Shown here: positions 1 through 25,270 of the stretch, piece by piece | Layout: every line of letters starts with the position of its first letter | Numbering within the stretch: position 1 is the first letter of the stretch | Source of the DNA: a virus | Virus record (IMG/VR): IMGVR_UViG_3300031623_000006 | Coordinates: 1 to 57,062 of that record | Direction: 5' to 3' (one strand) | Length of the DNA stretch: 57,062 bases | Notes under the pieces: model-generated | Seen by the model: only the letters and a program-made list of their open reading frames with translations | Database searches by the model: none | Told to the model about the DNA's origin: nothing | Position numbers and translations under genes: made by a program

Positions 1-11
1 GCCGTGGAGAA

Positions 12-317
12 TTGCCCACAAATTACCATTTGACCTTCAGCCGATCGGAATCGAATGAACGTCGCGCTATTGAGATCCTAATGCTGGGTGGAAACGTTGC
101 GACCGTATTCGAACGGACGTCGCGCTACAATCCGACAATTCCCGCAGAATGGCACGGGTTCCAGGTTGTCGATGGCGACAAAACCGACCTGCGATTCCTC
201 GAAGGCACGCAAGGCAAGGTTATCGGCTTGTACTTCAAAGGCAATAGCGACGATTCCACCGGATTTGTTGTGCCACTGGCAGACGCCCGACAGCCGCTAT
301 TGTCCGCAATTACATAG
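12..317 (+). CDS. unknown small protein, 5' end possibly cut by window edge
   Basis: The reading frame is open from the window edge and ends with TAG at 315-317. The first usable start is TTG at 12, but a GGAGA purine tract lies only one base before it, so the real start is probably upstream and outside the window. The ~101 residues are mixed alpha/beta in composition, with a glycine-rich second half and no motif I recognise. It heads a long same-strand series of small genes that look like phage early or accessory functions. Function unknown. Confidence 0.6.
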   Translation: MPTNYHLTFSRSESNERRAIEILMLGGNVATVFERTSRYNPTIPAEWHGFQVVDGDKTDLRFLEGTQGKVIGLYFKGNSDDSTGFVVPLADARQPLLSAIT

Positions 318-325
318 GGTAAACC

Positions 326-490
326 ATGGCCGAGCGGTTGAAGACAGCCACAAAGGCCCTCGTGGCCCTTGTGCGCGACGTGGCCGATACCATCATCAAA
401 GGAATCCCGCTAACCACAGGCGACGTTGACACTTTGCGATCGGTTGCCGATGCCGCGGAGATCGAACTCGAGTCTAAAGACACTGTCTGA
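326..490 (+). CDS. unknown 54-residue protein
   Basis: ATG at 326 lies 8 bases after the previous stop, with a GGGT tract just before it. The product is 54 residues, Ala/Val/Asp-rich and probably helical, without recognisable motifs. Tight spacing to the preceding gene suggests co-transcription and translational coupling. The downstream spacer starts with TGCCGCCAG, a motif seen after many genes in this region. Confidence 0.6.
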   Translation: MAERLKTATKALVALVRDVADTIIKGIPLTTGDVDTLRSVADAAEIELESKDTV

Positions 491-538
491 AATGCCGCCA
501 GAAACCATCATTGTACCCGTAACATGGAGAAAAGACCG

Positions 539-889
539 ATGCAAGAGTATTACACTTTTCACACTGATCCAGGACACGGCTGGCTCGAAGTGGAATTCGC
601 CGAACTTGAACGGCTTGGAATTGCAGGGGAGATCTCGCACTATTCCTACCGGAACGGAAGCATCGCATATCTGGAAGAGGATGGCGATGCGGCCCGGTTC
701 GCCAATGCCAAGGCGGCTGCAGGTGAGGAATTCGCCGATCACACTGTTAACGTCAACCATTCCCACAAAATCCGCAGCTATCGACCGTACACCGTACCTG
801 AACCGAAATTAGGCCGAACACCATTTCCGGCGCATTGTGCCGCCAGTGGCGATTGGATTGGACCGTCAGACGCTGATCCAGGCATGTAG
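539..889 (+). CDS. conserved phage-type protein of unknown function
   Basis: I chose the ATG at 539 because a GGAG ribosome-binding site sits 10 bases upstream, the spacing used by neighbouring genes. An in-frame ATG at 524 has no such site. The 116-residue product opens with a TDPGHGWLEV segment resembling small phage/plasmid proteins of unknown function. It is rich in charged and aromatic residues, with no signal peptide or membrane segment. Function unknown. Confidence 0.7.
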   Translation: MQEYYTFHTDPGHGWLEVEFAELERLGIAGEISHYSYRNGSIAYLEEDGDAARFANAKAAAGEEFADHTVNVNHSHKIRSYRPYTVPEPKLGRTPFPAHCAASGDWIGPSDADPGM

Positions 890-973
890 ACAACCAACCT
901 CCCCAACCTCGGGTGCAAGGCGAGCGCAGATTTGGCTGACCCCGACCACCTTTCTTTAGCTGGAGACGAGACC

Positions 974-1207
974 ATGTGGGTAAGAGGATGCGAAGGCGCG
1001 CCAAGTTGGATTCACCCGTCGATTTTGAAGTACGAGCGAGACCTGTTCGCCGGGCGGATCCGATGTCCGTTCAAGATTGACCGGAAGTTTGTCTCGGGCG
1101 AAGACGCGAAGCCAACCGGGCAGGTCGCGGCGGCCATTCTGTTGGACAAGACCACCGACAGCTTCCTGCCGATTGCGTTGACGCCGACCGGCAAGATTAA
1201 GTGCTGA
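974..1207 (+). CDS. unknown 77-residue protein
   Basis: ATG at 974 is preceded by GGAG at 962-965. The product is short, has two cysteines in its first half and ends in GKIKC. No family recognised. The leader before it (890-973) begins ACAACCAACCTCCCC, a sequence shared with the leaders of genes further along. Confidence 0.6.
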   Translation: MWVRGCEGAPSWIHPSILKYERDLFAGRIRCPFKIDRKFVSGEDAKPTGQVAAAILLDKTTDSFLPIALTPTGKIKC

Positions 1208-1226
1208 CGATAGCCGAACCAACTCC

Positions 1227-1249
1227 CCGCACGGGTGCAAGACGTGCGG
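1227..1249 (+). repeat. intergenic stem-loop CCGCACG-N9-CGTGCGG
   Basis: A perfect 7-bp inverted repeat (1227-1233 with 1243-1249) and 9-nt loop lie between two small genes. The same stem with the same loop length recurs at 3471-3493 after the same upstream words (ATAGCCGAACCAA), so the element is a repeated unit. There is no U-tract after it, so it is not a standard terminator. Confidence 0.75.
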
Positions 1250-1295
1250 CCAATTGGTCTGACTGTTTCCTTCAATCTCTAACTGGAGCCTTGCG

Positions 1296-1706
1296 ATGAT
1301 CGACAAGCTTAAAGAAATCGCCCCGAACTTTGTGTTTTCTGTGAGTCGAGAGATTGACGAATTGCATGTTTGGGACGGCGATGGACCCGATCCAACTGAC
1401 GATGGATTTGATCCGTTCGAGGTGACCGTCACCGCTCGCTGCGTTGTCGGTGGCGAGATCATCGAAGGAAATGCCTACATGGGCGGTTCCTACTTCAAGT
1501 TCGGTGAACCGTGTGGCGATGTCGGCGGATACCTGCCACAAATGCTTGAGGAAGCCGCTTCCGAACTGGGAAACTCTCACCAGTTTTTGGCAATTTCGAC
1601 GTGGAGAACATCACATCATGGAGAACTGCAAAACGCTATCGGTTTCATTAAACGAGAAATGAAACGAGAAATGTTAGACCGGTATCAGGCACAAGTGAAT
1701 AAGTAG
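1296..1706 (+). CDS. unknown 136-residue protein
   Basis: ATG at 1296 follows GGAG at 1284-1287. The protein is acidic in its first half (a DGDGPDPTDDGFD stretch) and more basic at the end, where a KREMKREM duplication is visible. No recognised domain, signal peptide or membrane helix. Function unknown. Confidence 0.7.
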   Translation: MIDKLKEIAPNFVFSVSREIDELHVWDGDGPDPTDDGFDPFEVTVTARCVVGGEIIEGNAYMGGSYFKFGEPCGDVGGYLPQMLEEAASELGNSHQFLAISTWRTSHHGELQNAIGFIKREMKREMLDRYQAQVNK

Positions 1707-1716
1707 CCACAACCAA

Positions 1717-1735
1717 CCTCCCCAACGTGGGGAGG
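1717..1735 (+). repeat. intergenic hairpin, 8-bp stem
   Basis: CCTCCCCA at 1717-1724 pairs perfectly with TGGGGAGG at 1728-1735 around a 3-nt loop. It follows the leader word ACAACCAA that is also found after the gene ending at 889. No U-run follows, so a processing or stability element is more likely than a terminator. Confidence 0.7.
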
Positions 1736-1786
1736 CGAGTTCTGCTTACTTTCCCTTTACCCTCACCTTAACTGGAGACCTGACCG

Positions 1787-2317
1787 ATGACGTTTGAGCA
1801 ATTCCAGCGAACCGGCTCCCACACCGATGACCTCGGCGCAATGCTGCGAGACGAATCGTGGATCGGCATTGCCGGTCGCATCTACTGCGGCACGCTGTTC
1901 ATCGCCCTCGACGAAGGTCGCTGGTCGGTCCTGATCGGCAATCAAGAGCCGTATTTCGATAACCTGCAGGATGCTGAGTTGTACCTCTTTGGATTCGCCA
2001 CAAGCGAAGGAATCGACCTGCCGTTGTGGTTCAAGGAGTTCTGCGACTACCGAGACATGCCCGCAATCCCGACCGACTGGGAAGACGTGAGTTGGCACAA
2101 CGACGTTTGCCCGTCGTTCAACTACGAGCCACATTTTCTCATCAACGCCAAATCGGCAGCCGTGCGAATCTTTGTTGACTACCTCGACGAATCGCTCCGA
2201 GAATGCCAAGGACACAAGCGATTCACAGCGTACCACAACAACGAGGAATTGATGCAACCGATTGGCTCTATGCTGATCGAAACCGACAACTGGTCCGAGC
2301 TATTGGGAGCGATCTAG
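1787..2317 (+). CDS. unknown 176-residue protein
   Basis: ATG at 1787 follows GGAG at 1773-1776. The product is acidic, rich in Trp, Tyr and Asp, and soluble in appearance. No domain recognised. Its TAG stop shares a base with the GTG start of the next gene, which argues for translational coupling. Confidence 0.7.
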   Translation: MTFEQFQRTGSHTDDLGAMLRDESWIGIAGRIYCGTLFIALDEGRWSVLIGNQEPYFDNLQDAELYLFGFATSEGIDLPLWFKEFCDYRDMPAIPTDWEDVSWHNDVCPSFNYEPHFLINAKSAAVRIFVDYLDESLRECQGHKRFTAYHNNEELMQPIGSMLIETDNWSELLGAI

Positions 2318-2490
2318 TGACTACCGAAACCATCCAAATTGTTGATTGCGGCGGGAAATACGAGGTACACCCAGCGGCGGACGGTGCAACGTGGTGCGTT
2401 GTCAACAGCGAGACCGGCGCGGTGCGAAATGAGGCCGTCACGCGACTGGCTGCAATTGCTCTCGCCAAAGAACTAAACGCAGGCGATTGA
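2317..2490 (+). CDS. unknown 57-residue protein (GTG start)
   Basis: GTG at 2317 overlaps the previous stop by one base and a GGGAG tract lies about 8 bases upstream. The 57 residues include a CGGKYEVHPAADGATW segment and an alanine-rich C-terminal helix, resembling small phage proteins of unknown function. An open frame upstream of 2317 lies within the previous gene, so the overlapping GTG is preferred. Confidence 0.6.
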   Translation: MTTETIQIVDCGGKYEVHPAADGATWCVVNSETGAVRNEAVTRLAAIALAKELNAGD

Positions 2491-2544
2491 TTAGACCGTG
2501 CCGCCAGAATACTCGCGTAAACCATTATTGAGAGGATGAAACCG

Positions 2545-2730
2545 ATGATCGGAAATCTTGATCTACATGAAATAATTGACCTGTGCGATGGGGGCGGAGG
2601 CATGATGGAAGCCGAGGCGCAACGCTTTAAGTCAATCGTGTTGGGTAGCGAATGGGGGGACACAAAGACGTCAGACATCCCTAACGGCGAGTGGGGGCGC
2701 ATGCTGGACGAGGCGACCATCGAGGAATAA
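2545..2730 (+). CDS. unknown 61-residue protein
   Basis: The ATG at 2545 is preferred over the one at 2536 because GAGAGG ends at 2535 and leaves proper spacing only for the second. The product is acidic, with a glycine run near residue 20. No family recognised. Confidence 0.55.
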   Translation: MIGNLDLHEIIDLCDGGGGMMEAEAQRFKSIVLGSEWGDTKTSDIPNGEWGRMLDEATIEE

Positions 2731-2772
2731 TGCCGCCCCACTACCCGCGTAAACCACTAACGAGGCCGACCA

Positions 2773-3021
2773 ATGACCCGTAAAGACCTGACGATCTACA
2801 CCGCAGCAATCCTGACGACGCTGGACGAGGAGCCTAGCGGTGGTTGCCCAGAATCTCACCTGTACATCGCGCTGGGAATGGATTTGCAGAAGTGGCACGC
2901 CGTCAGAGATTTCCTGCAGTCGTTCGACTGGATCACAATCCGCGTGAACTGGGTGGAAATCACCGCTGAAGGGCGGGACATTGCCGCCAAAGTGACCGCT
3001 GCACAGTCCGCACCCGCTTGA
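2773..3021 (+). CDS. small protein with winged-helix-like pattern
   Basis: ATG at 2773 has GAGG 8 bases upstream. The 82 residues alternate helices with a final pair of short strands (ITIRVNW...VEITAEGRDIA), the usual ending of winged helix-turn-helix domains. A DNA-binding role is therefore plausible, but the call rests on pattern only. The gene is followed by a 64-bp intergenic repeat. Confidence 0.6.
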   Translation: MTRKDLTIYTAAILTTLDEEPSGGCPESHLYIALGMDLQKWHAVRDFLQSFDWITIRVNWVEITAEGRDIAAKVTAAQSAPA

Positions 3022-3025
3022 TGCC

Positions 3026-3089
3026 GCCAGAATGCACACCGTGGCGCACGGTAGCGCGTGCTTCACATTGTCTATTTTGCAGCCTGTAA
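3026..3089 (+). repeat. 64-bp intergenic direct repeat, copy 1
   Basis: This stretch matches 4869-4932 with only two mismatches. It contains an ACCGTG-GCG-CACGGT hairpin (3038-3052) flanked by further pairable GCAC/GTGC. Each copy sits directly upstream of the ribosome-binding site of a small gene, so it behaves as a duplicated leader element. No clear promoter is visible in it. Confidence 0.85.
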
Positions 3090-3109
3090 CCTTTTAAGGA
3101 GTGGAGATC

Positions 3110-3445
3110 ATGAAGACCAAAACCAAAGCAACGCACACGCCGGGACCGTGGGTTGCCACATTCGACCACGCGACCAACAGGACCGTCGTTCAGAAAAGTG
3201 AGTTCGGGCCGTCGCCGCTGATTATGGAAACACCCGAGAACGGGTTGTCGCTGGATGAAATCGCCGCAAACGCCCGATTGATTAAAGCCGCACCCGAACT
3301 CTTACGGGACTTGTCCGAAATGATGGAACTCGCACAGGCTATCGTTAACAACTGGGAGAAAGGCGATTTGGCACAAGCCGTCATCGACTTGGAATGGTAC
3401 ACCGTCAATAAGGTTGCCGAGACCCTCGACGCCGCCACCAACTAA
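3110..3445 (+). CDS. conserved phage protein of the HTPGPW/ANARLI type, function unknown
   Basis: I chose the ATG at 3110 because AAGGAG and a second GGAG precede it, rather than the upstream in-frame GTG at 3101. The 111-residue product shows the two hallmarks of a widespread phage protein family: HTPGPW near the N-terminus and ANARLIKAAPELL in the middle. The family is common in phages of many hosts and its role is not established. Confidence 0.8.
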   Translation: MKTKTKATHTPGPWVATFDHATNRTVVQKSEFGPSPLIMETPENGLSLDEIAANARLIKAAPELLRDLSEMMELAQAIVNNWEKGDLAQAVIDLEWYTVNKVAETLDAATN

Positions 3446-3470
3446 ACGCACCGATAGCCGAACCAATCCC

Positions 3471-3493
3471 CCGCACGATTAGCGACCGTGCGG
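3471..3493 (+). repeat. intergenic stem-loop, second copy of CCGCACG-N9-CGTGCGG
   Basis: Bases 3471-3477 pair perfectly with 3487-3493 across a 9-nt loop. The stem matches 1227-1249 while the loop differs, which indicates that the paired structure is what is conserved. It is located between two small genes, with no U-tract after it. Confidence 0.75.
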
Positions 3494-3538
3494 CCCAGCG
3501 TGTACCGTTTGAAACCCCTATTGAGAGAGGCAAGAACC

Positions 3539-3712
3539 ATGAAGCACATCGAACCAGATCAAACACTCACAGTTGTGGAAGTTGAGGGACACCACGGAGA
3601 ACGTGGAGTCATCCTCACCGTCACTGTTGAAGACGACGACGGCGACCTCATCACTTTCGACATTGAGGCTCGCGGATTGCCGGGCAGCTATGCGAGCAGT
3701 GACCGCGCCTGA
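3539..3712 (+). CDS. unknown 57-residue acidic protein
   Basis: ATG at 3539 follows GAGAGAGG with good spacing. The product is mostly short beta strands around an EDDDGD acidic turn. No recognised family. An open frame reaches upstream to 3488, but that part falls inside the conserved stem-loop leader and is unlikely to be translated. Confidence 0.6.
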   Translation: MKHIEPDQTLTVVEVEGHHGERGVILTVTVEDDDGDLITFDIEARGLPGSYASSDRA

Positions 3713-3759
3713 AATGCCGCCAGTCTAACCCGTTCCCCCTAACCTTTGAGGCACGACCG

Positions 3760-4005
3760 ATGAACCGACCGACACGAGAAACGCGCCAGACACTGACAGG
3801 CCACCGGCGCGATGACCTTGACTTTGCGATGATGTTATTCAATTCCAATTGGAACTACCGACACGCGGCAACAGCCTATTGGCGCGCGGTTCATCGACAC
3901 TACACCCGCGAAGCGATTACGACCATTCGACGCATCACCGGCCGACGGCGCAAGCGATTGACGTTTCCGGCTATCGACTGGACCGTTTACGAATCATCAA
4001 TTTGA
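3760..4005 (+). CDS. unknown 81-residue basic protein
   Basis: ATG at 3760 follows GAGG at 3748-3751. The product is strongly basic (many Arg, with a GRRRKR run near residue 65) and probably helical, so nucleic-acid binding is possible. No family recognised. Confidence 0.6.
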   Translation: MNRPTRETRQTLTGHRRDDLDFAMMLFNSNWNYRHAATAYWRAVHRHYTREAITTIRRITGRRRKRLTFPAIDWTVYESSI

Positions 4006-4057
4006 AATGCAACCAGTCTGTTTCCCGTTTCCCCCCTCTTGCTGGAGCAGAGAGACC

Positions 4058-4285
4058 ATGATCACCCAAGATTGCATCGACCGAATGTTGCCCATCGTCG
4101 CGGATTCGTGGGAGCAGCTGCGCGGCTGCGACGTCTTCCGGCTGCTTGACTCCATTTCCTACGAGTCCCGCGAGTCTCTCGACAATGCCGCGCGGATCAT
4201 CGTCGGCAAGCGACCTGATCTGCTCGACCGCGTTGAGGATGCCGCCAGTGAAATACGTTGTGATCGCACCGAATTGCTCGTCTGA
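4058..4285 (+). CDS. unknown 75-residue protein
   Basis: ATG at 4058 follows GGAG at 4043-4046. The product appears all-helical and acidic. No motif recognised. Its downstream leader carries the CCCGCATAAACC...GAGG word shared with other genes here. Confidence 0.6.
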   Translation: MITQDCIDRMLPIVADSWEQLRGCDVFRLLDSISYESRESLDNAARIIVGKRPDLLDRVEDAASEIRCDRTELLV

Positions 4286-4327
4286 AATGCCCCCACTGCC
4301 CGCATAAACCCCTAATGAGGCCGACCA

Positions 4328-4651
4328 ATGCCAGCATTTTCACACTTCACAGGCTTACGCTGCGGACCATTCGCCGGACTACCGAAGTCTAAACCTCGCC
4401 GGGACCCGCTTATCTGGCGTGAATTCGCTGCACACTCGGACGGTTTTGTGCCAGCAGTGCGCCGGCAGTGGCATTTTGTCGGCACGTCGCGCGGCCAGAA
4501 ATGCCGAATGCAAGTGGAGTTGATCCGCGAGCTAATCGCCGGACGCTATGCCGTCCAATGCGTTTTTGCCATGAACGCCCTCTATTGCCCCGATGACGCC
4601 AACCTTGACGACCTGGAACCCATCAACGAATACCGAAAGGCGAACCAATGA
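4328..4651 (+). CDS. unknown 107-residue basic protein
   Basis: ATG at 4328 follows GAGG with 7-nt spacing. The N-terminal half is basic with a KSKPRRDP segment and the C-terminal half acidic. No domain recognised. The stop overlaps the next start (ATGA at 4648), so the two are probably translationally coupled. Confidence 0.65.
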   Translation: MPAFSHFTGLRCGPFAGLPKSKPRRDPLIWREFAAHSDGFVPAVRRQWHFVGTSRGQKCRMQVELIRELIAGRYAVQCVFAMNALYCPDDANLDDLEPINEYRKANQ

Positions 4652-4869
4652 ACGCAACGCCCGTCGAATACGACCACAATGGCAACACCGTCGCAGGCTG
4701 GATTATCGACAGTATGGAAAGCCCACTAACCGGAAAGCTACGATTTCTCGTGGCCGATAGCCCCAACGACTGCCCAACCGTTGACGGGAAATGGGTTGAC
4801 GCGATCGACTGCGAAGAACCCGAGGAACCCGGTTTCCGCAACGGACAGTGCTTGAGTCAATTCATCTAG
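4648..4869 (+). CDS. unknown 73-residue acidic protein
   Basis: ATG at 4648 overlaps the previous stop as ATGA. The product reads as a small beta-rich fold (DHNGNTVAGWIIDS...GKLRFLVADS) with an acidic C-terminal segment. No family recognised. It is followed at once by the second copy of the 64-bp intergenic repeat. Confidence 0.6.
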   Translation: MNATPVEYDHNGNTVAGWIIDSMESPLTGKLRFLVADSPNDCPTVDGKWVDAIDCEEPEEPGFRNGQCLSQFI

Positions 4870-4932
4870 CCAGAATGCACACCGTGGCGCACGGTAGCGC
4901 GTGCGTCACATTGTCTATTTTGCAGCCCGTAA
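4869..4932 (+). repeat. 64-bp intergenic direct repeat, copy 2
   Basis: This is the second copy of 3026-3089 (62 of 64 bases identical), with the same ACCGTG/CACGGT hairpin. It begins on the last base of the previous gene's TAG stop. Position and orientation relative to the next start are the same as in copy 1. Confidence 0.85.
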
Positions 4933-4953
4933 ACCTTTTGGGGATTTGAGATC

Positions 4954-5304
4954 ATGACGCGACAAGTAATCACAGACGGATCAGGTAGTTGGTTTGACGA
5001 TGCTACGGCGATTAAATTTGACGAGGACACCCGGTGGGACGGCAACAACCACATCAGCTTGGCGACCGGATCACAGTGGGATCACCAGTGGTTGTACTTC
5101 ACTAAATCGGAAAAGTGGGTGTTGCACGGTGACAGCCAGTACCAAGGCGGTGGGGAATCCTACGCGATTATCGACGACGATGAGGCCGTTAATTGGCTGA
5201 TCCAGAACGGATACGCTGGCCGATACAGGGCCGCCGAACTTGAAAAACTTCCCGCGAATATCCGCGATCAGGTCAACGCGGGGATCGCGTCACTTGAAGT
5301 TTGA
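4954..5304 (+). CDS. conserved protein of unknown function (RWDGNNHISLATGSQW type)
   Basis: ATG at 4954 lies after a GGGGATTTGAG tract. The 116-residue product carries TDGSGSWFD and TRWDGNNHISLATGSQW followed by a WVLH strand, which I recognise from small proteins on phages and integrative elements. The role of that family is not established. It looks soluble, beta-rich at the start and helical at the end. Confidence 0.75.
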   Translation: MTRQVITDGSGSWFDDATAIKFDEDTRWDGNNHISLATGSQWDHQWLYFTKSEKWVLHGDSQYQGGGESYAIIDDDEAVNWLIQNGYAGRYRAAELEKLPANIRDQVNAGIASLEV

Positions 5305-5362
5305 GACCAACTAAACGCGCCGCCAGACGGTGTATTCACTACCCTAAACTGAGGTTGACCAA

Positions 5363-5767
5363 ATGACCACGACAACATTCGACAGCGACCCGCGCAGCTT
5401 TGCAATCGAACTAACCGAGTCCGGTATGGTGAGTGCCGACCACTTGCTGCTTTGCGCCCTCAAGTACATGAGTCACGACGACTGCCGGGATATGCTGGAC
5501 TGTAACGAACTTTCCCCCCGGTTTGACGAGGAAGAGGAAGACCATGAGGAATTTGAGTTGGAAGATAAAGACGACGTTCGCAATGCATTTTGGTCCGACA
5601 ACTATGCGATCGAGTGCGACCGAGACGACGCCAAGTCGCAGAACGACTACAACGCCACCATTCGCACCATGTTCGTTGACTGGCTGGACAATGCGCACCG
5701 CACCGGCAGGTTGAGTGATGGCCTGGCCTCAGAACTGGTCTTTAGAGACGGCGATGTGGCCCTGTAG
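5363..5767 (+). CDS. unknown 134-residue highly acidic protein
   Basis: ATG at 5363 follows GAGG at 5352-5355. The protein is strongly acidic, with an EEEEDHEEFELEDKDD stretch around residues 55-70. Such DNA-mimic-like composition is seen in some phage anti-defence proteins, but nothing else supports that role here. Function unknown. Confidence 0.65.
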   Translation: MTTTTFDSDPRSFAIELTESGMVSADHLLLCALKYMSHDDCRDMLDCNELSPRFDEEEEDHEEFELEDKDDVRNAFWSDNYAIECDRDDAKSQNDYNATIRTMFVDWLDNAHRTGRLSDGLASELVFRDGDVAL

Positions 5768-5844
5768 GGAACCCCCAAGGCTGCGCCGTCACTTGGGCGG
5801 CGTATGCTTGGCGATTCTATTTCCTAACTTGAGAGGCTACGACC

Positions 5845-6114
5845 ATGACAAATTACCGCGAATTGATTCTAGCTGCAATGAACGACAACCAAACCGACCT
5901 TGACCGCATCGCCGCAGGTATCGCGCAGGCGTCCGGGCTGCTGATTGCCAACACTCACGCGCCGGGACCGTCCGATTCAGTCACCGTCACCAAAGACGGC
6001 TGGATTGCCGCGACCGTGGAACTCGCCCGACTTGAAGCGTGGGTTACTGGACTCAGCGAGACCCACAAAAGCCTACTCGACGACGGTCCCGACCCAGACG
6101 ACGTACACGCATAG
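5845..6114 (+). CDS. unknown 89-residue protein
   Basis: ATG at 5845 follows GAGAGG. The product has an N-terminal helix and an acidic tail (DDGPDPDDVHA). No family recognised. The leader upstream contains a GC-rich imperfect stem-loop around 5780-5803. Confidence 0.6.
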   Translation: MTNYRELILAAMNDNQTDLDRIAAGIAQASGLLIANTHAPGPSDSVTVTKDGWIAATVELARLEAWVTGLSETHKSLLDDGPDPDDVHA

Positions 6115-6159
6115 ACCGTGCCGCCAGACTACCCGCGTAAACCAAACGAGGATAAGACC

Positions 6160-6444
6160 ATGACCCAACGACCGCACGGCGAACACCCCACGCTCGGCGT
6201 CTGTGATTGCGACGACTGCCAGGCGTGGGACGAGGCAGAGAGGCACGAAAAAACCACGGACACAGCAGACCGCGACGAGTTTGTGACGCTGTTCGCAACG
6301 TGGCTATTGGATTCCGGCTACGCTGCCGTCACCACCGACGCTGAACGCATGGCTTGGGATTTCGTCTGTGGGGCGTGGAACGGAAACGCCGACTTGGCTG
6401 AGTGGGCCGCAGCATACGACGACGCAAACAAAGCAACCGAATAA
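6160..6444 (+). CDS. unknown 94-residue acidic protein
   Basis: The ATG at 6160 is chosen because GAGG precedes it by about 8 bases; the frame is open upstream but without a site. A CDCDDC cluster near residue 15 could bind a metal. The rest is helical and acidic. No family recognised. Confidence 0.6.
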   Translation: MTQRPHGEHPTLGVCDCDDCQAWDEAERHEKTTDTADRDEFVTLFATWLLDSGYAAVTTDAERMAWDFVCGAWNGNADLAEWAAAYDDANKATE

Positions 6445-6449
6445 ACAAC

Positions 6450-6555
6450 AGGCTGACCACCACAACCATCCATCCCCAGTCGCGCACGCAAGTCGTCGCT
6501 TTGGTCAGCCTCCGATAGCGTGTGGCGGCTGGGGAGTTTTCAGGAGGACTGACCA
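6450..6555 (+). promoter_or_regulatory. structured leader with competing stems (possible translational switch)
   Basis: AGGCTGACCA (6450-6459) is perfectly complementary to TGGTCAGCCT (6502-6511). The same TGGTCAG can instead pair with CTGACCA at 6549-6555, which lies between the GGAGG site (6543-6547) and the start codon at 6556. A further stem, CCCCAG (6474-6479) with CTGGGG (6529-6534) plus CACGC/GCGTG (6485-6489 with 6518-6522), interleaves with the first. The alternatives would expose or cover the start. No known riboswitch class is recognised, and the CTGACCA word also occurs in simpler leaders nearby. Confidence 0.45.
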
Positions 6556-6657
6556 ATGATCGAAGTAGACCCTCTCGTTGTGGATACAGTCATTGCCGCA
6601 TTGCTGGGCGGCTTGGTATTGGGAATCGCGTACCTTTGGATCGGGGGTGACCTATGA
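6556..6657 (+). CDS. 33-residue single-pass membrane peptide
   Basis: ATG at 6556 has a strong GGAGG site 8 bases upstream. The peptide begins with an acidic MIEVDP and continues as a hydrophobic helix (residues 7-29) long enough to cross a membrane. It overlaps the next start by ATGA at 6654. Small membrane peptides at such a place can be toxins, superinfection-exclusion factors or holin-like, but nothing discriminates here. Confidence 0.55.
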   Translation: MIEVDPLVVDTVIAALLGGLVLGIAYLWIGGDL

Positions 6658-6952: not shown

Positions 6953-7183
6953 ATGAAAACAGCGACCACAGAAACGGCAGCCGGCATCTTGGCTCGCAAC
7001 GTCAAGCGACTTCGCCTCTCTCGCGGCTGGTCACAAACGAAGCTGGCGCACAAGATGGCCCGCCCGCAACCGCGAATTTCCGAGATCGAACGCGCTGAGT
7101 TTTGTGTCGGCACGAGCGTGATTGACGCACTGGCTGAAGTGTTTGGCGTGTCTCAGTCATCGCTGCTCAGGAACCATTCTTAG
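6953..7183 (+). CDS. XRE-family helix-turn-helix regulator (likely phage repressor)
   Basis: The 76-residue protein is a single XRE/HTH_3 domain: helices at roughly residues 10-22, 26-33 (SQTKLAHKM), 37-46 (recognition helix, QPRISEIER) and a closing VIDALAEVFGVS. This is the Cro/cI-like DNA-binding fold without a C-terminal dimerisation or protease domain. The ATG at 6953 is chosen because it sits at the predicted transcription start; in-frame GTG codons at 6947 and 6923 overlap the promoter. It lies between two terminators as its own transcription unit, which fits a lysogeny or early-gene repressor. A regulator of the adjacent repeat array is also possible. Confidence 0.8.
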   Translation: MKTATTETAAGILARNVKRLRLSRGWSQTKLAHKMARPQPRISEIERAEFCVGTSVIDALAEVFGVSQSSLLRNHS

Positions 7184-7241: not shown

Positions 7242-7275
7242 CCCTCGTCTGATGTGAATCGGGCGAGGGTTTTTT
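7242..7275 (+). terminator. intrinsic terminator after the repressor
   Basis: CCCTCG (7242-7247) pairs with CGAGGG (7264-7269) and is followed by a run of six T residues. It ends the repressor transcript a few bases before the first unit of the repeat array, so the array should either have its own promoter or rely on readthrough. Confidence 0.75.
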
Positions 7276-7280
7276 ATTGG

Positions 7281-7552
7281 AGTGCCAACCGAGCTTGGGG
7301 ACTGAAACAAGCCCACCGCGTGCCAGCCATTCCATCGGACTGAAACAGGAGTCAAGAGCGCAACCAGACACTCGGCCTGAAACATTGTCCAAGCGTGCAA
7401 CCATCAGTTTGGACTGAAACAACCTAATCGCGTGCAACCACGGTGCTGGACAGAAACACAAGCCGCGAGTGCTAACCAAGCCGGCCGACAGAACCACAAT
7501 ACTTGAGTGAAACCAACGTAGGCGACTGAAACAGAAACACCGCGTGCAAAGG
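7281..7552 (+). repeat. TIGR-like dual-spacer repeat array, upstream part (7 units plus a partial)
   Basis: Two short conserved blocks alternate. Block A is GCGTGCAACCA with variants GAGTGCTAACCA and GCGTGCCAGCCA; block B is GGACTGAAACA with variants. B copies start at 7299, 7337, 7374, 7411, 7448, 7486 and 7523. A copies start at 7281, 7318, 7356, 7393, 7430, 7467 and 7505, and a degenerate A is at 7542. The A-to-B gap is exactly 7 nt and the B-to-A gap exactly 8 nt each time. All gap sequences differ: AGCTTGG/AGCCCACC, TTCCATC/GGAGTCAA, GACACTC/TTGTCCAA, TCAGTTT/ACCTAATC, CGGTGCT/CAAGCCGC, AGCCGGC/CAATACTT, ACGTAGG/GAAACACC. The unit length is 37-38 nt. CTGA in block B recalls box D of C/D RNAs. 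This geometry matches TIGR arrays, whose ~36-nt guides have two spacers, and not CRISPR, whose spacers are longer. Confidence 0.85.
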
Positions 7553-7560
7553 AAACCGAA

Positions 7561-8472
7561 ATGTCAATCACGGCAGAACAAGCAAAAGCAGACGAAGTGA
7601 TTCGCGGCCTTACCGACCCATCAACGTGGGAACAACTCGCACGACTCGACAAAGACCTGAAGGATGCGGCAACCGATCTCGGACGTGTGCAAGCCCGCTA
7701 CCTCACTGACTGCTACTACCAATTGCAAGACTTCCGCATTGCATCCGCGGCTCAAGTTCGATCTGCCGAAGACGAGCCAAACCGCGTGCTTTCTTGGTTT
7801 TTCGCACAGATGCAAGTTCTGGAAAACGACATCAAGCGGGCGTTGAAAGAGTTCTCGTCGTCCTACGCTACCGGGCAATGGATGCAGTCGATCTGCGGCA
7901 TTGGCCCCGTCATCTCCGCTGGCATGTTGGCACAACTCGACATACGCGATTGCAAGACTGTAAGCCGCTGGTGGCGATTTGCCGGTCTCGACCCGACTGT
8001 GAAATGGGAGAAGAAATCCAAGCGACCCTGGAACGCCAAGCTCAAAGTTCTCTGTTGGAAACTCGGGGAATCGTTCATCAAAGTCCAGAACAAAAAAAAC
8101 GATTACTACGGCAAGATATTCCGCACCCGCAAGGACTACGAGATTGATCGCAACGAGAGCGGCGGCAACTCCGAGACGGCCGCACGCATCCTCACCGAGA
8201 AGAATTGGGACAAGACCACCGACGCTTTTAAGCACTACAGCGAGGGCCATTTGCCGCCAGCACAAATCAACGCTCGCGCCCGACGCTACGCCGTGAAGAT
8301 GTTCCTCTCGCATCTGCATCACGCGATGTTCGTCGATATGTACGGCAAGGAACCTCCTGTGCCTTACTCGTTCGAGCAGTTGGAGGGCGACCATCGGCAT
8401 TTCGTTGCGTTGCCGAACTGGCCGTTTGAGAGTAAGGGCGGCAAGCCGCTGTCTGATTTGTATGCGGAGTAA
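7561..8472 (+). CDS. tasA-like: TasA-like stand-alone Nop/Transposase_20-domain protein (TIGR-associated)
   Basis: The 303-residue protein has an N-terminal helical/coiled-coil part (about 1-105), then a helix-hairpin-helix core at 111-145 (GIGPVISAGMLAQLDI...RWWRFAGLDP). A basic stretch (KKSKRPWN) and further helices run to about 260. The core is what is annotated as Transposase_20 in IS110/IS116 transposases, related to the Nop domain of box C/D RNPs. The DEDD RuvC-like catalytic domain of IS110 enzymes is missing, as are any HNH or RuvC nuclease motifs. A Nop-only protein beside a dual-spacer array matches the TasA type of TIGR-Tas systems; RNA binding and guided DNA recognition are inferred. 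The start at 7561 follows AAAGGAAA, which grows out of the last, degenerate A block. The TAA stop lies inside the first block of the downstream array part. An inactive IS110 remnant is less likely, because the array is regular and the frame intact. Confidence 0.8.
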   Translation: MSITAEQAKADEVIRGLTDPSTWEQLARLDKDLKDAATDLGRVQARYLTDCYYQLQDFRIASAAQVRSAEDEPNRVLSWFFAQMQVLENDIKRALKEFSSSYATGQWMQSICGIGPVISAGMLAQLDIRDCKTVSRWWRFAGLDPTVKWEKKSKRPWNAKLKVLCWKLGESFIKVQNKKNDYYGKIFRTRKDYEIDRNESGGNSETAARILTEKNWDKTTDAFKHYSEGHLPPAQINARARRYAVKMFLSHLHHAMFVDMYGKEPPVPYSFEQLEGDHRHFVALPNWPFESKGGKPLSDLYAE

Positions 8473-8572
8473 CAACCAGCGATTGAGACTGAATCATATT
8501 ATCTGCGTGCAACCAAAATTGTGGACAGAAACAAGATAGCCGAGTGCCAACCACGACCCCGGAATGGAAACA
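8467..8572 (+). repeat. TIGR-like array, downstream part (3 units)
   Basis: The same A and B blocks continue after the gene. A blocks are at 8467-8478 (GAGTAACAACCA, overlapping the gene's stop codon), 8505-8515 (GCGTGCAACCA) and 8542-8553. B blocks are at 8486-8496 (AGACTGAATCA), 8523-8533 (GGACAGAAACA) and 8561-8572 (degenerate). Gaps again are exactly 7 nt (GCGATTG, AAATTGT, CGACCCC) and 8 nt (TATTATCT, AGATAGCC). The last B block is the most diverged, as expected at an array end. Confidence 0.85.
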
Positions 8573-8609
8573 CACCGCGATGACAGGAACGCGGCGGGGC
8601 GTGTTTTTT
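8571..8609 (+). terminator. terminator-like hairpin closing the array
   Basis: A GC-rich hairpin with CCGCG (8575-8579) pairing CGCGG (8589-8593), and ACAC able to pair with GTGT further out, is followed by six T residues ending at 8609. It directly follows the last repeat and would end the array/tas transcript before csrA. Confidence 0.6.
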
Positions 8610-8632
8610 AACCATCAACCAAGGGAATGAAT

Positions 8633-8860
8633 ATGTTGGTACTTTCTCGGAGAGCCGGACAGGTAATTTCAATCGGTGACAACATCACAGTTACCGTCAC
8701 CGACATTGGACCGCGTCACGTGAAGCTGGGAATCGTTGCGCCAAACCTGCCGATTGTTCGCGACGACGCAATCAGGCGCAACTACAGACCCGGCTCGATG
8801 CAGACGCCCGCCGATGTTGCGAAGCGAACGCGGGACCAAGACGACTGGATGTCGCCATGA
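8633..8860 (+). CDS. csrA: CsrA-family RNA-binding translational regulator
   Basis: The 75-residue protein begins MLVLSRRAGQ and continues through ISIGDNITVTV and VKLGIVAPNLPIVRDDAI, the five-strand core of CsrA/RsmA. The RNA-contacting N-terminal L-R-R and the Arg of the VRDD turn are present. CsrA dimers bind GGA motifs near ribosome-binding sites. The ATG at 8633 is chosen over 8627 because AAGGGA at 8621-8626 gives correct spacing and the family starts with MLVL. A ~15-residue C-terminal extension is not part of the core. The gene overlaps the following GNAT gene by four bases. Its target could be host or phage leaders, many of which carry GGA near the start. Confidence 0.9.
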   Translation: MLVLSRRAGQVISIGDNITVTVTDIGPRHVKLGIVAPNLPIVRDDAIRRNYRPGSMQTPADVAKRTRDQDDWMSP

Positions 8861-9348
8861 ATTTGATGCTCCGATGGATAATTCGCAGGGACGTGGACGA
8901 AGTTGTTCAAATCGAAGAATCATCGTTCGGTGCGCCGTGGACTGAAGGGGAATTTATGCGGTGCCTGAAACAACGGGAAGTGGTCGGCATGGTGGCCGAG
9001 CATGACCACGAAATCGCGGGCTTCATAATTTACGAACTGCACAAGTCGAAGCTCTGGATTTTGAATTTCGCCGTCTCACCATCAATGCGGCGGATGGGAG
9101 TGGGACAACAGTTGGTTGCCTGCCTCATCGGCAAGCTGTCGCAACAGCGGCGAAACCAAATTGTGTTGGACGTGCGAGAGACGAACCTCGACGCGCAACT
9201 GTTCTTTCGCGCACAGGGATTCAGCGCGGCTGGCATTATCCCTGAGCGGTACGACGACGGGGAAGACGCATATCACTTCCAACACAACCTGCAACCACTG
9301 GAGCATGAGCCAGTCAACCGACTGTCGGCGTTTTTTGATGAATCGTGA
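8857..9348 (+). CDS. RimI-like GNAT N-acetyltransferase
   Basis: The 163-residue protein follows the GNAT plan: an N-terminal IRRDVDEVVQIEESSF segment, the W-containing acceptor loop, a central strand LWILNFAVSP, motif A RRMGVGQQLV (R-x-x-G-x-G/A, acetyl-CoA pyrophosphate binding) and ETNLDAQLFFRAQGF (motif B). This resembles RimI, which acetylates the N-terminus of ribosomal protein S18; the phage substrate is unknown. It starts by ATGA overlap with csrA, so the two are co-translated. The ~25-residue tail after the domain is unusual. Confidence 0.85.
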   Translation: MNLMLRWIIRRDVDEVVQIEESSFGAPWTEGEFMRCLKQREVVGMVAEHDHEIAGFIIYELHKSKLWILNFAVSPSMRRMGVGQQLVACLIGKLSQQRRNQIVLDVRETNLDAQLFFRAQGFSAAGIIPERYDDGEDAYHFQHNLQPLEHEPVNRLSAFFDES

Positions 9349-23602: not shown

Positions 23603-25270
23603 ATGCTGATAATCAGGCAAAACGCAACGCACAAAGTGGTCATCGGGCCGGTGGTGGCCGTCGGCGATGGCTTCACGCCAGTGACCACGCTTGACGAAGG
23701 TACGGCTGACGAAGCGGAAGCCATCCTGCACAACAACGGCACCGTCGTTGATATTTCCGGCGTTGGCTATCCGCTCGTGGCGATAACGACAGCCGATGGA
23801 TACTACCACCTGACGTTGGCAACGGGGATTACCAGCACCGTCGGTCACCTGACTGTGATTTACAACGACGACTCGCTGTGCCTGCCTGTCAGGGCTGACT
23901 TCACTGTGGTTGAGGAAGCGGTCTACGACAAGACATACAAGGCAGCGGCAACAGGTGTCGATGCGGACTGGACTCCACTTGGACGCTTGGACGTTTTGCT
24001 TGACGCTATCCCAACGACTGCCATGCGAGGCACGGACTCGGGAGCGTTGGCATCTGTTGCAACTGAGGCGAGGCTGGCTGAACTGGACGCCGCAAATCTC
24101 CCCACCGATGTTGCCGCTATCCCAACGACCGCAATGCGTGGAACTGATTCCGCCCTGACCGACAAGGCAGGCTTCTCGCTCTCGACGGCTGGGATTCTCG
24201 CGGTGTGGCATCAGGCGTTGACTGCGGTTGTGACGGCTGGAACGGTGGGCAAGCTGTTGAAAGATGAGATCACAGCCGCGAGGATGGCGGTGCTAACCGA
24301 CTGGATTGACGCTGGGCGATTGGACGCTCTGCTTGACGCTATCCCGACAACGGCGATGCGAGGCACAGACTCGGCAGCGTTGGCGAGTGTTGCCACAGAG
24401 GCGAGATTGGCGGAACTCGATGCTGCAAATCTTCCGACCGACATTGCAGCGATCCCGACGACCGCAATGCGCGGAACAGATTCAGCCGCGTTGGCATCTG
24501 TTGCGACCGAGGCGAGATTGGCTGAATTAGACGCAGCTAATATCCCAGCGGACATTGCAGCAATACCAACGACGGCCATGCGAGGTACAGACTCGGCCAA
24601 CACAACAACCCCGCCCACGGTCAACGCCATCGTCGATCAAGTGTGGGATGAAGCACAGGCCGACCACGTTGCGGTTGGCAGCTTCGGCGTAACCGCCAGT
24701 GAAATTGCAGCAATACCAACGACGGCCATGCGAGGCACAGACTCGGCGGCACTTGCTTCCGTTGCAACTGAGGCTCGCCTTGCCGAGTTGGATGCTGCAA
24801 ATCTCCCCACCGACATTGCAGCGATTCCGACGACAGCGATGAGGGGAACGGATTCGGCGGCACTCGCTTCCGTTGCAACTGAGGCTCGGCTTGCCGAGTT
24901 GGATGCTGCGAACCTTCCGACTGATATTGCAGCTATTCCGACGACAGCGATGAGGGGAACGGACAACGTGGTTCTGGCCGGTCCAACAAAAGCAGAGATG
25001 GATACGGCGCACGCGCTGCTTGCAACCCCCGCACAGGTTAACACTCAGGTCGTCGATGTGCTGCGAACCGACACGGCAGCCGAACTGTCCGCCGTTCCCG
25101 CAGCAAGCCCCGCGCTGCACACGATGATTCAGCTTCTCTACATGGCGCTAAGAAACAAAGTGGACGTGACTGCGAACAACAAGGAAGTCCATGTCGATGC
25201 TGGGACAGTCCTTGGAACGAAAACTCTTTCCGATGATGCCACAACCTACTCTGAAACGAAGATGGCATAA
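23603..25270 (+). CDS. repeat-containing tail fibre-like protein
   Basis: The 555-residue protein has an N-terminal beta domain (about 1-115). A long stretch of tandem repeats follows, with eight copies of AIPTTAMRGTDS/N and five of LASVATEARLAELDAAN. A C-terminal helix and a short trimer-like end complete it. Such repeats form elongated, probably trimeric, coiled or beta-spiral shafts in phage fibres. The start at 23603 follows AGGTCATAACCG. The repeat DNA is much less conserved than the protein. A minus-strand HNH gene sits directly after the stop. Confidence 0.7.
   Translation: MLIIRQNATHKVVIGPVVAVGDGFTPVTTLDEGTADEAEAILHNNGTVVDISGVGYPLVAITTADGYYHLTLATGITSTVGHLTVIYNDDSLCLPVRADFTVVEEAVYDKTYKAAATGVDADWTPLGRLDVLLDAIPTTAMRGTDSGALASVATEARLAELDAANLPTDVAAIPTTAMRGTDSALTDKAGFSLSTAGILAVWHQALTAVVTAGTVGKLLKDEITAARMAVLTDWIDAGRLDALLDAIPTTAMRGTDSAALASVATEARLAELDAANLPTDIAAIPTTAMRGTDSAALASVATEARLAELDAANIPADIAAIPTTAMRGTDSANTTTPPTVNAIVDQVWDEAQADHVAVGSFGVTASEIAAIPTTAMRGTDSAALASVATEARLAELDAANLPTDIAAIPTTAMRGTDSAALASVATEARLAELDAANLPTDIAAIPTTAMRGTDNVVLAGPTKAEMDTAHALLATPAQVNTQVVDVLRTDTAAELSAVPAASPALHTMIQLLYMALRNKVDVTANNKEVHVDAGTVLGTKTLSDDATTYSETKMA
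23999..24963 (+). repeat. tandem coding repeats of the fibre shaft
   Basis: Units of roughly 33-36 codons encode near-identical protein segments. Third-codon positions vary widely: the IPTTAMRGTDS segment is written with different synonymous codons in most copies, although the last copies are more alike. One 40-residue insertion (NTTTPPTVNAIVDQVWDEAQ) interrupts the series near 24600-24700. Confidence 0.75.

What the first reader, a model, noticed from the sequence alone, without database searches (positions are those of the whole stretch)
7281..7552. Constant 7- and 8-nt gaps with variable sequence
Seen: in every upstream unit the A-to-B gap is exactly 7 nt and the B-to-A gap exactly 8 nt, although gap sequences share no consensus. 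Length constancy with sequence freedom is what guide segments require and is too regular for decayed tandem repeats. If the outer block bases are partly variable, the true spacers may be about 9 nt each.
Basis: seen in the sequence. Interest (0 to 1): 0.8.

Follow-up and report, generated by a model that had tools for sequence, protein, structure and literature searches.

The report
Phage TIGR guide-RNA array with TasA
The evenly spaced short blocks are a TIGR array, a string of paired 8-letter RNA guides flanking the phage gene for their partner protein TasA, so this is a new example of an RNA-guided DNA-targeting system first described in 2025 rather than a new kind of system.

Summary
The blocks are the two alternating repeats (edge, loop) of a TIGR array, the guide array of TIGR-Tas systems (Faure et al. 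2025, PMC12045711). Seven units (7279-7549) precede a 303-aa gene (7561-8472). Its product scores 179 bits against NCBI's TIGR-Tas model (cut-off 100) and only 21 against IS110 (cut-off 140). It has no nuclease domain, so it is a TasA. The 7/8-nt asymmetry comes from where the blocks were cut: conservation per column gives 8 + 8 nt spacers, as in the characterised Salicola phage array. I found 85 relatives; 76 carry a period-35 to -37 array next to tas. No spacer pair matches its own phage or 32 related phages better than shuffled pairs, so targets are unknown and self-regulation is unlikely. Guide processing and DNA binding are inferred from relatives, not shown for this phage.

The parts
7279..7549 (+). 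Upstream TIGR array: seven edge-spacerA-loop-spacerB units plus a 3'-truncated final edge repeat (CGCGTGCAA)
7299..7309 (+).
7317..7328 (+).
7561..8472 (+). tasA: 303-aa nuclease-less TIGR-associated Nop-domain protein; the final upstream edge repeat runs into its AGGA Shine-Dalgarno-like sequence
   Evidence: NF052498 TIGR_Tas_endo 179.2 bits, cut-off 100; PDB TasR 9mty 6e-12 and TasH 21kl 5.5e-6, 7e-40 and 2e-22 with the family profile
8467..8579 (+). Downstream TIGR array: two full units and a third, degenerate one; its first edge repeat (GAGTAACAACC, 8467-8477) contains the tasA stop codon TAA (8470-8472)
8552..8609 (+). Predicted intrinsic terminator at the array end (stem pairs the last spacer with GGGGCGTG, then TTTTTT); z-score only -1.55
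   Evidence: sequence
7242..7275 (+). Strong terminator-like hairpin (12 pairs, then TTTTTT) ending 3 nt before the first edge repeat; terminator of the upstream HTH gene or a control point for the array
   Evidence: z -6.0
6954..7183 (+). Small HTH (Cro/C1-type) regulator gene upstream of the array (the scanned ORF starts at GTG 6923; ATG at 6954). A neighbour; link to the array untested
   Evidence: Pfam HTH_31 2.6e-8, HTH_3 4.5e-8

Best explanation
This is a TIGR-TasA locus of a tailed phage. Inferred steps: the array is transcribed, with or without tasA, and cut within the edge repeats into RNAs of about 37 nt, each laid out as half edge, spacer A (8 nt), loop, spacer B (8 nt), half edge. 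A TasA dimer holds the two pseudo-symmetric repeats. Spacer A pairs with one strand and spacer B with the other strand of a DNA target of the form 5'-A-(0-2 nt)-revcomp(B)-3'. Because TasA has no nuclease, it would bind and bend the target and block its transcription or replication rather than cut it. The targets are most likely in competing mobile elements or in the host, not in the phage itself. Shown here: array anatomy, Tas membership, absence of a fused nuclease, conserved repeats with changing spacers among relatives, no self-match. Inferred from the published TasA, TasR and TasH work: processing, dimer, DNA pairing, effect.
For: Curated NCBI TIGR-Tas model at 179 bits versus cut-off 100, also matched by all 47 aligned relatives. 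Closest solved structures are TasR and TasH. Two alternating repeats of 10-11 nt with 8-nt spacers, the layout of the SpTIGR array of Salicola phage CGphi29 read directly here. Both repeats share a TG motif and end ..ACCA or ..AACA, the box D and box C positions of the paper. Arrays on both sides of tas, a 5'-truncated edge at the start of the downstream one, a 3'-truncated edge at the end of the upstream one, and a terminator at the end of the downstream one, as the paper describes. 76 of 85 related loci have such arrays. Spacers are replaced between close relatives while repeats persist.
Against: No RNA or binding data exist for this phage. The unit is 37-38 nt instead of the usual 36, and the array is short and somewhat degenerate (loop CTGA becomes CAGA in three copies). 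No target was found. No promoter match lies before the array, and a strong terminator-like hairpin stands 3 nt upstream of it.
Confidence: 0.94

Rival explanations
1. The gene is an IS110-family transposase remnant and the repeats are bridge-RNA debris or transposon ends.
For: Pfam Transposase_20 weak match (18.6 bits); PHROG 4285 labelled transposase; IS621 is a distant structural hit (8e-6 with the profile).
Against: IS110 equivalog model scores 21.3 against a cut-off of 140, TIGR-Tas 179 against 100. No room for an N-terminal DEDD catalytic domain (the Nop-like match starts near residue 24-45). Bridge RNAs are single two-loop units, not ten-unit arrays. The gene with its array recurs in dozens of phages.
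Confidence: 0.02
2. Decayed tandem repeat or satellite with no guide role.
For: Repeats are imperfect and the unit length varies between 37 and 38 nt.
Against: Repeats and spacers differ sharply in conservation column by column; repeats persist across relatives that share few spacers; arrays sit beside tas in 76 of 85 loci.
Confidence: 0.02
3. A structured or regulatory leader of the downstream gene: an attenuator or protein-binding repeats in the 5' untranslated region.
For: The upstream array lies directly before the tasA start codon and runs into its ribosome-binding site, so the RNA could also bind TasA and autoregulate it; a terminator-like hairpin precedes it.
Against: 117 nt of the array fold no better than shuffles (z +0.9); no Rfam match; a second array lies after the gene; related arrays reach well over 100 motifs; spacers are not conserved. 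It may hold as a secondary role.
Confidence: 0.05
4. TIGR-like guides aimed at the phage's own genome for self-regulation.
For: TasA has no nuclease, so self-binding would not be lethal.
Against: Best own-genome matches for the ten spacer pairs have 2-4 mismatches, the same as pairs with shuffled partners and as the wrong-layout control; over 1502 pairs of related phages self-matches equal controls. The records may be incomplete.
Confidence: 0.06

Closest known systems
SpTIGR-TasH of Salicola phage CGphi29 (HQ634153; Faure et al. 2025, PMC12045711)
   Same: Phage-borne; alternating 10-nt repeats (AAGCGAGCCA / AAGACAACCA) with 8-nt spacers and an array-end terminator; homologous Nop-like protein
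   Different: TasH carries an N-terminal HNH nuclease; the window protein has none; repeats are GNGTGC(C)AACCA / GACTGAAACA and the unit is 37-38 nt
FpTIGR-TasA (Flavonifractor plautii) and other TasA loci in PMC12045711
   Same: Nuclease-less Tas protein with a dual-repeat array
   Different: FpTIGR spacers total 18 nt, here 16; sequence of FpTasA not compared here
TasA-like phage loci found here, e.g. L130 (54% protein identity), L165/L166, L174, L198; Microcystis phage Mvi-JY20 protein XAI95461.1
   Same: tas gene with flanking dual-repeat arrays
   Different: Mostly 36-nt units with GAGTGAACC/GAGAGCACC-type repeats, often far longer arrays
IS110 transposases with bridge RNA (IS621, ISCro4)
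   Same: Shared Nop-like RNA-binding core
   Different: No DEDD domain, no bridge RNA, array instead; the curated IS110 model is not met
Box C/D snoRNP (Nop5)
   Different: DNA rather than RNA target, no k-turn or fibrillarin; not compared here by sequence

Membership tests
TIGR-Tas (TasA type) | Tas protein of the Nop-domain clade | tested here: met
   NF052498 179.2 bits, cut-off 100; TasR and TasH are the nearest solved structures. Fold not modelled.
TIGR-Tas (TasA type) | No fused nuclease (TasA rather than TasR or TasH) | tested here: met
   303 aa; the match begins near residue 24-45; no RuvC or HNH domain by Pfam
TIGR-Tas (TasA type) | Array of two alternating 8-12-nt repeats with short constant-length variable spacers, beside tas | tested here: met
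   Edge 10-11 nt, loop 10 nt, spacers 8 + 8 nt; arrays on both sides
TIGR-Tas (TasA type) | Box D (TG) and box C (CCA-like) motifs shared by both repeats | tested here: met
   GNGTG..AACCA and GACTGAAACA; T of the loop TG is A in three of nine copies
TIGR-Tas (TasA type) | 5'-truncated first edge, 3'-truncated last edge, terminator | tested here: met
   First downstream edge cut by the tasA stop codon; last upstream edge truncated; terminator after the downstream array, weak by z-score. The upstream array has a full first edge and no terminator after it.
TIGR-Tas (TasA type) | Spacers vary while repeats are kept between related loci | tested here: met
   In relatives of this clade; no close relative of this very phage was found
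TIGR-Tas (TasA type) | Processing to about 36-nt tigRNAs bound by Tas | not testable with these tools
   Needs small-RNA sequencing
TIGR-Tas (TasA type) | Tandem-spacer recognition of both DNA strands | tested here: inconclusive
   No target of the expected layout above control in 1.9 Mb of related phage DNA or in the own genome
IS110 transposase | Match to the curated IS110 model (DEDD plus Transposase_20 domains) | tested here: not met
   21.3 bits, cut-off 140; Pfam PF02371 18.6 bits, cut-off 21.3
CRISPR array | One repeat of 25-36 nt, similar-size spacers, cas genes | tested here: not met
   Two alternating repeats of 10-11 nt, spacers 8 nt; the families assigned to neighbours were HTH, CsrA and GNAT; no PADLOC match for the tas product

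The most novel reading that the evidence does not exclude
TIGR-TasA arrays of phages are fast-changing guide libraries against rival mobile elements or hosts, in which whole two-spacer units are gained, lost and exchanged throughout the array without any dedicated acquisition gene, while tas stays nearly the same; the nuclease-free TasA silences or excludes its targets by binding alone.
Probability: 0.45. Interest if true: 0.65.

Novelty: new member of a known kind. Interest (0 to 1): 0.42.

Why it matters
TIGR-Tas targets, array growth and the role of nuclease-free TasA are open questions in the founding paper. This locus adds a compact TasA with 8 + 8 nt spacers and arrays on both sides of the gene. 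The sister phages found on the way allow direct comparison of arrays: pairs with 94-99% identical tas share only part of their spacers, and gained or lost blocks more often hold an even number of spacers (49 even, 20 odd, pairs not independent), as expected if whole units move. That makes spacer turnover measurable.

Tried and rejected
Single-protein homology scans found nothing because the peptide patterns were too specific; a 3-protein alignment with the Salicola and Microcystis phage proteins opened the family. The first repeat-pattern scan of viral contigs gave single hits per contig, judged to be chance; a stricter one gave none. No plasmid relative was found. Target searches: own genome in four layouts, own genome with 8 + 8 nt spacers and shuffled-partner controls, 1502 related spacer pairs against 32 related phages and this one, and two guides of a relative in a bacterial contig against three bacterial genomes: nothing above control. 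Exact matching against whole collections was not tried, since 16-18-nt split patterns are expected to hit by chance several to many times in tens of Gb. A csrA link was rejected: CsrA over the cut-off in 0 of 50 related records. Rfam: no match. Structure prediction was interrupted, then unavailable.

Full report
What is there. In 7279-7549 two motifs alternate: loop GGACTGAAACA and edge CGCGTGC(C)AACC, with gaps of exactly 7 nt after each loop and exactly 8 nt before each loop, seven times. Self-match at lag 37 is 0.549 against at most 0.438 in 1000 dinucleotide shuffles. The edge block is 11 or 12 nt long, so the repeat unit is 37 or 38 nt.

Re-reading the gaps. Information per column over nine full units shows that the first base of the 8-nt gap is almost always A, and so belongs to the repeat, whereas the first base of each block is variable, and so belongs to the spacer. 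The symmetric reading is ..AACCA-N8-GACTGAAACA-N8-GNGTGC(C)AACCA: two 8-nt spacers, each preceded by a CA-ending motif and followed by G-N-[C/G]-TG. The 7 versus 8 asymmetry disappears. The characterised SpTIGR array of Salicola phage CGphi29 reads the same way, AAGCGAGCCA-N8-AAGACAACCA-N8, and the paper gives 16 nt of variable sequence for it.

The gene and the second array. The ORF at 7561-8472 (303 aa) matches NCBI's TIGR-Tas model with 179.2 bits (cut-off 100) and IS110 with 21.3 (cut-off 140). The nearest solved structures are TasR and TasH (7e-40 and 2e-22 with a 47-sequence profile). It has no nuclease domain, so it is a TasA. After its stop codon the array resumes: GAGTAACAACC (8467-8477) is an edge repeat containing the TAA stop, followed by two full units and a third that is merged with the predicted terminator. 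The last upstream edge repeat is truncated and runs into the ribosome-binding site of tasA. Stop codons fused to the first box C are a habit of the family: 43 of 72 distinct tas ends have CC within 4 nt after the stop, against 10% for all stop triplets in the same DNA.

Relatives. Eighty viral contigs and five genome contigs encode relatives; all 47 aligned ones match the TIGR-Tas model. In 76 of 85 loci the DNA beside tas has a repeat period of 35-37, mostly 36; several of the other nine have short arrays visible by eye (for example L210, L211 and L130). The arrays can be long: about 150 guide pairs were read in each of two 120-kb phages.

In sister phages, repeats keep their place and spacers change. 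L178/L179 (tas 98.7% identical) have 41 identical spacers out of 49 and 57; L165/L166 (98.3%) 19 out of 54 and 55 in the downstream array; L150/L154 (96.1%) only 5 out of 27 and 26. Changes lie throughout the array, not at one end. Inserted or deleted blocks hold an even number of spacers in 49 of 69 cases, which suggests that whole two-spacer units move; parsing errors and shared ancestry limit this count.

Targets. From the published cut geometry (8-nt 3' overhangs) I derived the target layout 5'-A-(0-2)-revcomp(B)-3'. In the own 57 kb the best matches have 2-4 mismatches, the same as shuffled partners. For 1502 spacer pairs against 1.9 Mb of 32 related phages plus this one, the expected layout gives 17 hits with at most one mismatch, against 13-18 for wrong layouts and shuffled partners, and exact 8 + 8 matches show no preferred spacing. 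So there is no sign that the phages target themselves or these siblings. The true targets remain unknown, as in the founding paper.

Mechanism. Shown here: anatomy, family, absence of a nuclease, variable spacers between kept repeats, no self-targets. Inferred from PMC12045711: cutting in the edge repeats, binding to a TasA dimer, pairing of each spacer with a different DNA strand. Further inference: without a nuclease, TasA acts by binding and bending, thus blocking transcription or replication of rival elements or host genes; the paper itself leaves this open.

Loose ends. A strong terminator-like hairpin (7242-7275, z -6.0) ends 3 nt before the first edge repeat and no sigma-70-like promoter was found on this strand between it and tasA, so how the upstream array is transcribed is not explained. 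The neighbouring csrA is not part of the system (0 of 50 related records above the cut-off).

Noticed in passing
window 8627-8860: csrA-like global regulator gene (Pfam CsrA 5e-15) directly after the array, followed by a GNAT acetyltransferase at 8857-9348; not conserved in related phages (0 of 50 records above the cut-off)
   Followed up: yes
window 7242-7275: Very stable terminator-like hairpin 3 nt before the first edge repeat, with no recognisable promoter after it
   Followed up: partly
window 1-6600: Many small ORFs separated by recurring intergenic elements (GCCGCCAGA..CCCGCGTAAACC, and a 70-nt element 94% identical at 3026 and 4869); possibly repeated translation or processing signals
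   Followed up: no
L009 (Microcystis phage Mvi-JY20, PP438412) 2875-3600 and downstream: Protein XAI95461.1, annotated hypothetical, is a nuclease-less Tas relative followed by an ATGCGAGCC / ACGAAACCC dual-repeat array ending in a terminator
   Followed up: partly
L165, L166, L176, L181, L198: Very long arrays (up to about 150 guide pairs per phage) with extensive spacer replacement between near-identical tas genes (L165/L166)
   Followed up: partly
window 24341-24964: Two tandem arrays of a 111-nt unit inside the ORF at 23603-25270, i.e. a repeated 37-aa segment
   Followed up: no
L205 (IMGVR_UViG_3300018492_000150): Distant Tas relative with a period-35 array of very different, AT-rich repeats (AAAAGATTCA / ATATATC)
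   Followed up: no
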